DNA of 40,429 nt from Candidatus Gastranaerophilales bacterium (lineage in GTDB: Bacteria; Cyanobacteriota; Vampirovibrionia; Gastranaerophilales; Gastranaerophilaceae): assembly GCA_947624935.1 (NCBI GenBank), contig CANQML010000007.1, positions 1 to 40,429 on the forward strand, given 5' to 3'. The notes beneath the pieces were generated by a model, which worked only from the letters and a program-made list of their open reading frames with translations, was not told the DNA's origin and searched no databases. Positions 22,097 through 24,620 of this stretch are shown here, one piece after another. Position numbers and translations under genes: made by a program. The stretch's first letter is position 1; every line of letters starts with the position of its first letter.

Positions 22097-22123
22097 AAAA
22101 AAAGAGCCTCTTATTTGAGGCTC
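22095..22123 (-). terminator. Rho-independent terminator of the gene at 22160-23176
   Basis: On the minus strand GAGCCTC-AAATAA-GAGGCTC is followed by nine Ts. It abuts the ispD stop on the other strand. Confidence 0.88.
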
Positions 22124-22159
22124 CATCACAACTAACCTTTATACTAATATGAGGAATCT

Positions 22160-23176
22160 TTATTCTGCCGTTTGTGCTTGTTCCACTTTATTTTTCAATG
22201 CTATCATTGCTTTACATATTTTGTCATCATCTCTCCAGCCAATCCAATTTGATTTAAGGCTCAATCTTGCTTCTGAAACCTCTTTATCAGCATCTATTCC
22301 GAGTAAATATGCACGTTCTTCAAGCGCATCTATTAAATAAGTACTGATTTCTTCTTTTTGATCGCCTTCGCAATCATCCATCAAGGTTTCAATAAAGCCG
22401 AAGTCATCGCTTGCATATCTGCCTTGAGTGCCATAAGTATTATCCCATTGGTTCCAAACTTCGAGTACGCTTCCCGCATCAATTTGTTCCATCAAAGGTT
22501 TCAAACCGTTTTCATCAGAATCGTAGTTCGTACCCGGCCCATAAATTGCTTTGTCGAGTTTGTGAGTAAAATCTTTTAATGCAAGAGCGCTTGGAGCTTC
22601 CAAAGACGGCTCTTCCAAAGATGAATCTTCAGAGTCATCGGACTCTTGTGGAGTTTGCTCATCTTCACCACATTCCGCAAGAATTTTATCTGTTAAAGCT
22701 TGTGTTTTTTCTTTTAAACCGTTGAACTTGTTAATAATAACGTCCAAGCCTGCTTTGATTTGCTGTGTATTTGCTGACTGTTGAAGTTGTTTTAAATTTG
22801 TATATTCCTGTTCGATTTTTTCAACTTCTTTTATAGTTGCTTTTAATTGTTGTTTATATGTGTCAGCTATATCATTGGATTCAGAAGCTTCTTTAAGAGT
22901 AGCTTTGAAAGACGCGATATTTTTAGCGAAGTTTTCCATAGAAGCATTAACTCCGATTGCATTGCCGATTTCCTGACCCTGCAAATAAGCTGCTTGATTT
23001 AAGTAATTTTGAGCCGGATTTGATTGGCAGCAGCTGTTTAATGAGTAAAAGAACGGGTTTGTGACGTTTTGTACCGCAAATGCCTCATAAGGTGTGAAGT
23101 ATGAAGGCATTGAATTGATGTGAAAACATCCTCCGAAGTTAGTTGTAAATAAATATGGATTACATATTCCAAACAT
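22160..23176 (-). CDS. Unknown protein with coiled coil and a possible annexin-like repeat
   Basis: 338 residues, no named family that I can assign. The N terminus is rich in Phe, Asn, Tyr and Cys (MFGICNPYLFTTNFGGCFHI) without a normal signal peptide. Residues about 80-170 are helical and probably coiled coil. A short acidic linker follows (EDEQTPQESDDSEDSSLEE). Residues about 206-290 have the spacing of an annexin repeat: KAIYGPGT at 209-216, then a helical segment with LEVWNQWDNTYG and FIETLMDDCEGDQKEEISTY. In annexins, KGxGT and a downstream acidic residue bind calcium. ATG 23176 has AAGGGG upstream and the gene ends at a clear terminator, so it is a single-gene transcript. Confidence 0.7.
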   Translation of the reverse strand: MFGICNPYLFTTNFGGCFHINSMPSYFTPYEAFAVQNVTNPFFYSLNSCCQSNPAQNYLNQAAYLQGQEIGNAIGVNASMENFAKNIASFKATLKEASESNDIADTYKQQLKATIKEVEKIEQEYTNLKQLQQSANTQQIKAGLDVIINKFNGLKEKTQALTDKILAECGEDEQTPQESDDSEDSSLEEPSLEAPSALALKDFTHKLDKAIYGPGTNYDSDENGLKPLMEQIDAGSVLEVWNQWDNTYGTQGRYASDDFGFIETLMDDCEGDQKEEISTYLIDALEERAYLLGIDADKEVSEARLSLKSNWIGWRDDDKICKAMIALKNKVEQAQTAE

Positions 23177-23573: not shown

Positions 23574-23602
23574 TTGACATATTAAGGCAAAGAGATTATA
23601 AT
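23574..23602 (+). promoter_or_regulatory. Consensus sigma-70 promoter of the pseudopilin at 23688
   Basis: TTGACA at 23574-23579, a 17-bp spacer and TATAAT at 23597-23602 match the vegetative consensus completely, the only such promoter noticed in the window. The start would be near 23609, giving a leader of about 80 bases. Confidence 0.8.
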
Positions 23603-23627: not shown

Positions 23628-23687
23628 AATTAAAGTATTATGATAAAGGAAAAAGCCCAACAGGATATAAAAGAAAGGATAAAAATT

Positions 23688-24620
23688 ATGACAAAAGAAT
23701 TAGTAAAAGAAAATGTAGCAAGACAAGACGGTAGTCGTGACGCAATCCAAAGAAGAGCCCTCACCAGCGGTTGTAACACTCGTGAACTCGTGAACAACCG
23801 CTTCCTCTCCAAATCAGGAGAGGAATTGTGCAACTCGTTCCCTCTCCTAGTGGAAAGCGTGAGGGTTTGTTACGATGACGAATGCTATTATGCAAAACCC
23901 AATGTGGAAAGTGGCTTGCCACCTCACTTTACTCACTTACGTAAATGCTACGCGTTTACATTGGCAGAAGTCCTTGTTACATTAGCCGTTATCGGCATTG
24001 TTGCCGCAATGACTATACCGACTTTGATTAACAATTACCGTGCCGCTGAAATGAAAACAAGATTGACAAAATCTTATTCGCTTATAAGTCAGGCATTTGA
24101 GCTTATGAAAATTGATAACGGCGGTTATGTTGACCAAAACAGTTATTCCAAACAAACATTTGCGCCTGTTTTCCAACGATATTTTAAAACTGTAAAGGCT
24201 AATGTAGGAAAAGTAAATAATGATATGCCGTTTTACAAAAATTTTGCGGGAAATGCAGATTTTAGCAGACAACTTCTTGATGACGGCACTTTGTACCTGC
24301 CTGATGGAACATTAATTTTTATCGAGGATCCTTCAATACCTGCAAATCATGTTTTTATTTTTGTGGACATTAATGGCGTTAAAAAGCCAAATGTGCTGGG
24401 AAAAGATTTATTTGGGTTTTATATTTCAGATAACAAACTCCTACCTATGGGAGCAAATGACAATGCCATAAAAAAAGACAGGATGTTTGGTGACAGTGTT
24501 CCTTCCGATGAAGAAGATGATTGGTGCAATGAAACAAGTAATTCTCTACGTAATGGATTAAGTTGTACTTATAAAGCACTCAATGATAAGGATTATTTTA
24601 AAAATATTTTTGCTAAATAA
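23688..24620 (+). CDS. Pseudopilin with 89-residue repeat-derived leader
   Basis: 310 residues from ATG 23688, chosen because AAAGGAT lies seven bases upstream and because the minus-strand relative at 40139 has the same leader (MTKELVKE here, MKKNLVDE there). Residues about 20-85 are the translation of dispersed repeats (for example SGCNTRELVNNRF from the GCGGTTGTAACACTCG element). The pilin core FTLAEVLVTLAVIGIV begins at Phe90 after Ala, followed by AAMTIPTLINNYR and a mature part of about 221 residues. Prepilin peptidase would remove the 89-residue leader. Expression comes from a consensus promoter with a palindrome likely bound by the adjacent Xre protein. A typical prepilin leader is under 30 residues, so this is unusual. 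Ligand and assembly system are unknown. Confidence 0.83.
   Translation: MTKELVKENVARQDGSRDAIQRRALTSGCNTRELVNNRFLSKSGEELCNSFPLLVESVRVCYDDECYYAKPNVESGLPPHFTHLRKCYAFTLAEVLVTLAVIGIVAAMTIPTLINNYRAAEMKTRLTKSYSLISQAFELMKIDNGGYVDQNSYSKQTFAPVFQRYFKTVKANVGKVNNDMPFYKNFAGNADFSRQLLDDGTLYLPDGTLIFIEDPSIPANHVFIFVDINGVKKPNVLGKDLFGFYISDNKLLPMGANDNAIKKDRMFGDSVPSDEEDDWCNETSNSLRNGLSCTYKALNDKDYFKNIFAK
23767..23805. repeat. GCGGTTGTAACACTCG repeat, copy 2, inside a coding region
   Basis: Same element as at 1210 and 37828, here read in frame as part of the pseudopilin leader (residues about 27-40). Confidence 0.8.

What the first reader, a model, noticed from the sequence alone, without database searches (positions are those of the whole stretch)
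22160..23176. Bacterial protein with a possible annexin-like repeat
DKAIYGPGTNYDS followed by a helical segment with LEVWNQWDNTYG and FIETLMDDCEGDQKEEISTY has the spacing of a eukaryotic annexin repeat, including GxGT and nearby acidic residues that could bind calcium. Bacterial annexin-like proteins are few. Here it sits beyond a coiled coil in a strongly expressed-looking single gene with a clear terminator.
Basis: inference. Interest (0 to 1): 0.52.

Follow-up and report, generated by a model that had tools for sequence, protein, structure and literature searches.

The report
Single-repeat annexin domain in gut bacterium
A gut bacterium from the non-photosynthetic relatives of cyanobacteria carries a protein ending in one divergent annexin repeat, a building block best known from the calcium-triggered membrane-binding proteins of animals and plants.

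Summary
A 338-aa gene lies at 22160-23176 on the minus strand, and its last 140 residues form a divergent annexin repeat followed by two extra helices. Alone, the window protein hits no annexin model. Four lines of evidence still show the relationship. (1) Profiles of its relatives hit annexins first in the PDB (E 3e-20, 2.9e-13, 1.1e-6). (2) Comparison with 12 Pfam-recognised annexin repeats from the same order gives probability 98% over the whole repeat; the protein's own N-terminal region gives 2.6%. (3) A relative with the same architecture passes Pfam's annexin cut-off. (4) The model (pLDDT 93) matches one annexin repeat in its 37 best structural rows, though only at Z 6.8-8.4, and Foldseek is not significant. 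The loop's G[T/S] is kept in 27 of 29 relatives, an acid aligned with annexin's D/E-turn ligand in 29 of 29. The domain occurs in 98 of 292 sampled genomes of the phylum. Bacterial annexins were described in 2014, not from this lineage (PMC3894181). Calcium and membrane binding are inferred, not shown.

The parts
22160..23176 (-). whole gene, 338-aa annexin-repeat protein
22952..23176 (-). residues 1-75: N-terminal region, aromatic/Gly/Asn-rich, with a predicted beta hairpin at 9-22; conserved in relatives; no evident signal peptide or membrane span (max Kyte-Doolittle over 19 residues 0.7)
22670..22954 (-). residues 75-169: predicted antiparallel three-helix coiled-coil bundle
22589..22669 (-). 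residues 170-196: acidic, low-confidence (disordered) linker
22301..22588 (-). residues 197-292: annexin-repeat domain
22529..22540 (-). residues 213-216, GPGT: counterpart of the annexin GxGT A-B calcium loop
22373..22375 (-). Asp268: acid aligned with the annexin D/E-turn acid (D or E in 29 of 29 relatives)
22166..22288 (-). residues 297-337: two extra helices after the annexin repeat
22103..22124 (-). terminator-like hairpin between this gene and the convergent ispD

Best explanation
The gene encodes a soluble protein with an N-terminal aromatic/Gly-rich segment, a three-helix coiled-coil bundle, a flexible acidic linker and one divergent annexin repeat capped by two extra helices. Shown by computation: the domain is homologous to annexin repeats (my confidence about 0.93) and belongs to a family spread through this lineage. 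Inferred: the GPGT loop and Asp268 hold a calcium ion that bridges the domain to acidic lipid headgroups, so the protein docks reversibly on a membrane when calcium is high, while the helical bundle and N-terminus provide oligomerisation or a partner site (about 0.45). The confidence below is for the whole statement.
For: Relatives: 16 of 16 genomes of the genus, window's own included; domain profile A3 in 62 of 146 relatives; A4 in 98 of 292 phylum genomes, every listed match in the window's own family. PDB profile searches: A4 best annexin VI 3e-20, 57 of 60 shown rows annexins or annexin fusions; A2 2.9e-13, 58 of 60; A1, the less selected set, 1.1e-6 with annexins as the top 12 of 24. hhalign against Pfam-recognised annexin repeats: probability 98.0, E 1.9e-13, 76 columns; 97.6 for A3; control with the N-terminal region 2.6, whose PDB hits are coiled coils and other helical proteins (60 of 73 shown, none an annexin). 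L125, with the same N-terminus (E 9.5e-9) and domain (E 6.8e-35), scores 25.7 bits against Pfam's annexin cut-off of 25. Model: pLDDT 93.2, pTM 0.89; VIA-align ranks 1-37 annexins or fusions, rmsd 1.8-3.5. Site: G215 in 28 of 29, T or S216 in 28 of 29, D/E268 in 29 of 29. Lineage relatives combine annexin repeats with EF-hand matches (L106, L117).
Against: The window protein alone has no Pfam annexin match at E 10 and no annexin hit in the PDB. Foldseek: no match with E <= 0.001, best annexin E 0.97. Z 6.8-8.4 falls in the range the tool warns can be a common helical arrangement; the first non-annexin (a designed repeat) scores 6.7. Designed helical proteins also hit the profile at 1e-5 to 1e-4. 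Spacing from GxGT to the acid is 43-56 residues, longer than in classical annexins (39 recalled). 8 of 29 relatives have S for T. Annexins usually act as four-repeat cores; here there is one repeat. Nothing shows calcium or lipid binding, expression or location.
Confidence: 0.6

Rival explanations
1. An annexin-repeat homologue that has lost or changed the calcium function: the module is now a calcium-independent protein-protein or structural domain, with the extra helices closing the surface where neighbouring repeats would pack.
For: Single repeat, altered loop spacing, S for T in 8 of 29, extra helices F and G, no EF-hand in this protein.
Against: The acid is kept in 29 of 29 and G215 in 28 of 29, more than a purely structural role would seem to need.
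Confidence: 0.3
2. Unrelated helical bundle with a chance GxGT: the annexin similarity is convergence.
For: No hit for the single sequence; Foldseek not significant; middling Z.
Against: Profile hits with annexins on top for three alignments, hhalign over the whole repeat with a clean control, a same-architecture relative over the Pfam threshold.
Confidence: 0.06
3. Exported adhesin or effector: like large lineage relatives fused to LysM, amidase, lysozyme, lipase or Zeta-toxin domains, it is delivered outside the cell by a route without Sec signal, and the annexin module docks it on a target membrane.
For: Large relatives carry LysM, Amidase_3, Phage_lysozyme, Lipase_3 or Zeta_toxin domains together with an annexin-like domain, and their printed N-termini show no obvious signal peptide (by eye). 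Kodavali 2014 reported toxin and lipase fusions (PMC3894181, section 10 read).
Against: The window protein has no enzymatic domain. In many relatives the gene sits among housekeeping genes. No secretion system was looked for.
Confidence: 0.15

Closest known systems
Bacterial annexins of Kodavali et al. 2014 (PMC3894181; abstract, sections 6, 7, 10 and search passages read)
   Same: Single or few annexin domains in bacterial proteins, GxGTD mostly conserved, often Trp or another hydrophobic residue at the x position, some fused to toxin or lipase domains.
   Different: Their 34 proteins from 17 species lie in Bacteroidetes/Chlorobi, Gemmatimonadetes, Proteobacteria and Actinobacteria; the word cyanobacter does not occur in the text. 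The present family lies in Gastranaerophilales, has two extra C-terminal helices, a longer GxGT-to-acid spacing and an N-terminal helical bundle.
Eukaryotic annexins (Pfam PF00191; annexin A5, A4, VI)
   Same: Five-helix repeat, GxGT A-B loop, acid at the D/E turn by profile alignment.
   Different: Four or eight repeats in eukaryotes against one here; the window sequence is below Pfam detection.
   Same: Same family of genomes; its repeats align with the window domain profile.
   Different: Four Pfam-grade repeats (E 5.7e-56), other N-terminus, not an orthologue.

Membership tests
Annexin-repeat domain superfamily (PF00191 fold and sequence) | Significant profile similarity to annexin repeats over the whole repeat | tested here: met
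   control
Annexin-repeat domain superfamily (PF00191 fold and sequence) | Five-helix annexin-repeat fold | tested here: met
   Predicted model only; Foldseek alone not significant
Annexin-repeat domain superfamily (PF00191 fold and sequence) | GxGT loop with a downstream D/E-turn acid (type II calcium site) | tested here: inconclusive
   Residues conserved, spacing longer than classical, geometry not measurable here
Annexin-repeat domain superfamily (PF00191 fold and sequence) | Recognised by the Pfam model above the curated cut-off (a detection threshold, not a biological feature) | tested here: not met
   Window protein: no match; the same-architecture relative L125 passes, 25.7 against 25 bits
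Classical (eukaryotic-type) annexin | Core of four or eight annexin repeats | tested here: not met
   One repeat; not filed as a classical annexin
Classical (eukaryotic-type) annexin | Calcium-dependent binding to acidic phospholipids | not testable with these tools
   Needs biochemistry

The most novel reading that the evidence does not exclude
The gut sister lineage of cyanobacteria (Gastranaerophilales) has its own old, diversified annexin toolkit, from single-repeat proteins like this one to four-repeat, EF-hand-linked and cell-wall-enzyme-linked forms, used as calcium switches for membrane or envelope attachment. It could help decide whether annexins arose in bacteria before eukaryotes.
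Probability: 0.3. Interest if true: 0.75.

Novelty: new variant of a known kind. Interest (0 to 1): 0.52.

Why it matters
Bacterial annexins were thought few and patchy, which left open whether eukaryotic annexins have a bacterial root. A lineage in which the domain is common, with a single-repeat gene present in every sampled genome of one genus and a true four-repeat form in another genus, offers a sample on which that question can be tested. If the domain binds calcium and membrane, it is a minimal annexin for biochemistry and a lead to calcium responses in a little-studied gut group.

Tried and rejected
Single-sequence searches of Pfam, NCBIfam and PDB found only coiled-coil noise. The Pfam annexin model on the own genome gave one sub-threshold hit elsewhere (E 0.217); the same search rang at that loose limit in 7 of 14 control genomes, so I ignored it. 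Viral contigs: no relative; viral fold library: nothing with E <= 0.001. Plasmids: no match. Phages: one match (E 2e-3) lies antisense to an annotated tape measure gene, so it was taken as chance. The N-terminal segment was tested as a shared export signal: 17 of 30 genomes give a solid hit (E <= 3.8e-7), all at the annexin-domain gene; two further hits at E > 0.003 lie in frames broken by stops. A match of a 1706-aa protein (L099) was not reproduced by default hmmsearch, and L103 gave none, so both were dropped. Recent transfer from an animal host: L105 matches animal annexins only distantly (best single stretch of the best chain 33 bits); no tree was built, so transfer is not excluded. Fold rows other than annexins (designed repeats, focal-adhesion bundles) were treated as common helical arrangements.

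Selection caveats: A2 and A3 were hand-picked from 29 relatives for clear GxGT-like forms (13 and 14 of 29); A1 took 21 of 29 including S forms. The 28 loci in A4 were fetched by a pattern that itself requires the E and the D/E of the D/E turn, so the 29 of 29 acid count is by construction; the count I rely on is (29 proteins found by full-length search; L029, a second match to the same ORF as L008, left out). In one search nine large proteins were given; L113 went.

Full report
Where and what. The gene is on the minus strand at 22160-23176 and encodes 338 aa.

The protein alone is silent. phmmer against the PDB and hmmscan against Pfam and NCBIfam give only coiled-coil noise.

Relatives. A full-length search of 99 related genomes finds matches in 27, including all 16 genomes of the genus, own included. 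Their C-terminal domains show the pattern helix A - GxG[T/S] - helix B - helix C with a conserved Trp - FIE.xM[D/N/W][D/E] - helix E. A domain profile (A3) matches 62 of 146 relatives. A4 matches 98 of 292 genomes drawn from the phylum, every listed match in the window's own family; at least 20 genomes of that family have none, and 174 genomes without a match are not listed. The own genome has one copy. Stand-alone short forms (open frames of 150-222 aa) and long forms (to over 2000 aa) exist too.

Homology to annexins. hmmsearch of the PDB with A2 (13 sequences), A1 (21) and A4 (29) puts annexins first every time: 2.9e-13, 1.1e-6 and 3e-20. These sum weak repeat matches, so I sought independent tests. 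The Pfam annexin model, run on the same 146 relatives, passes its cut-off in 12, with 0 of 14 control genomes ringing; several of these places coincide with the domain-profile hits (G045:C23, G117:C24, G047:C2, G107:C140, G068:C146, G070:C3, G017:C14). In the phylum sample the Pfam model passes in 7 of 292. One protein (L105) has four annexin repeats (E 5.7e-56). Twelve such repeats (A5), compared with A4 by hhalign, give probability 98.0 and E 1.9e-13 over 76 columns; the N-terminal region of the same proteins gives 2.6. L125, a relative with the same N-terminal motif, linker and domain, passes the Pfam cut-off on its own at 25.7 against 25 bits. Of single domain members, 4 of 13 and 4 of 29 hit PF00191 at E <= 1, best 2.1e-4 and 2.9e-3.

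Structure. AlphaFold2 with A4 gives pLDDT 93.2 and pTM 0.89. In VIA-align the 37 best rows are annexins, annexin-A2 fusion chains or alpha-14 giardin, Z 6.8-8.4, 73-94 residues aligned, rmsd 1.8-3.5, covering model residues 1 to about 90-119; the next row is a designed repeat at 6.7. Foldseek itself is not significant. The fold evidence is therefore supportive through its uniformity, not its size. The full-length model adds a beta hairpin, a confident three-helix bundle at 75-169 and a disordered acidic linker; its annexin rows recur at residues 190-303. Two helices after the repeat (protein residues 297-307 and 317-337) are an addition to the annexin repeat.

The calcium site. hhalign places the family's FMxD against annexin IxGDFSG, so Asp268 corresponds to the D/E-turn acid. 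In 29 relatives found without motif selection, G215 is kept in 28, position 216 is T in 20, S in 8 and E in 1 (G[T/S] together in 27), and position 268 is D or E in 29. The A4 count for the acid is biased by how its loci were fetched. The distance from T to the acid is 43-56 residues (52 in the window) against 39 in annexin A5 (recalled), so the geometry is not assured. Residues 196-338 are very acidic (net -15).

Setting. In 13 of 29 loci (window included) a lipoate-protein ligase gene is nearby, in 9 a thiL-like and in 7 an ispD gene; 8 have a small gene beside it that I recognise from memory as ribosomal protein S15. This steady, housekeeping-like setting argues for an inherited cellular gene. 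In the window an HTH gene lies upstream on the same strand and ispD is convergent.

Wider lineage. Large relatives combine an annexin-like domain with LysM, Amidase_3 and Phage_lysozyme (L113, L114), EF-hand matches mostly below cut-off (L098, L101, L102, L106, L117), Lipase_3 (L100), Zeta_toxin (L098) or a marginal calpain match (L112). The lipase and toxin fusions echo those reported in other bacteria (PMC3894181, section 10).

Literature. Searches for bacterial annexin / annexin repeat (119 papers, 25 listed), annexin + Melainabacteria (4), annexin + Gastranaerophil (8), and two broader ones showed no listed paper on annexins of this lineage; I judged all but PMC3894181 by their listings. 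Only open-licence papers are held.

Verdict. The window gene carries a divergent, single annexin repeat, a new variant of the known bacterial annexins. Calcium-dependent membrane docking is the likeliest mode of action and is untested.

Noticed in passing
L113, L114: Cell-wall enzymes with LysM, Amidase_3 and Phage_lysozyme domains and an annexin-like domain, without an obvious signal peptide at the printed N-terminus.
   Followed up: partly
L098, L100, L112: Large proteins pairing an annexin-like domain with Zeta_toxin, Lipase_3 or a marginal calpain match; they look like polymorphic effectors.
   Followed up: partly
   Followed up: partly
window 23574-23602: Perfect sigma-70 consensus (TTGACA, 17, TATAAT; 12 of 12) on the + strand just upstream of a pilin-like gene (23640-24620).
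   Followed up: no
G250: One genome of the family has seven places matching the annexin-like domain profile, a local expansion.
   Followed up: no
L005, L012, L017, L022, L028: Several relatives carry a further conserved C-terminal domain after the annexin-like domain (motif around GKDYFGKDYL), absent in the window protein.
   Followed up: no
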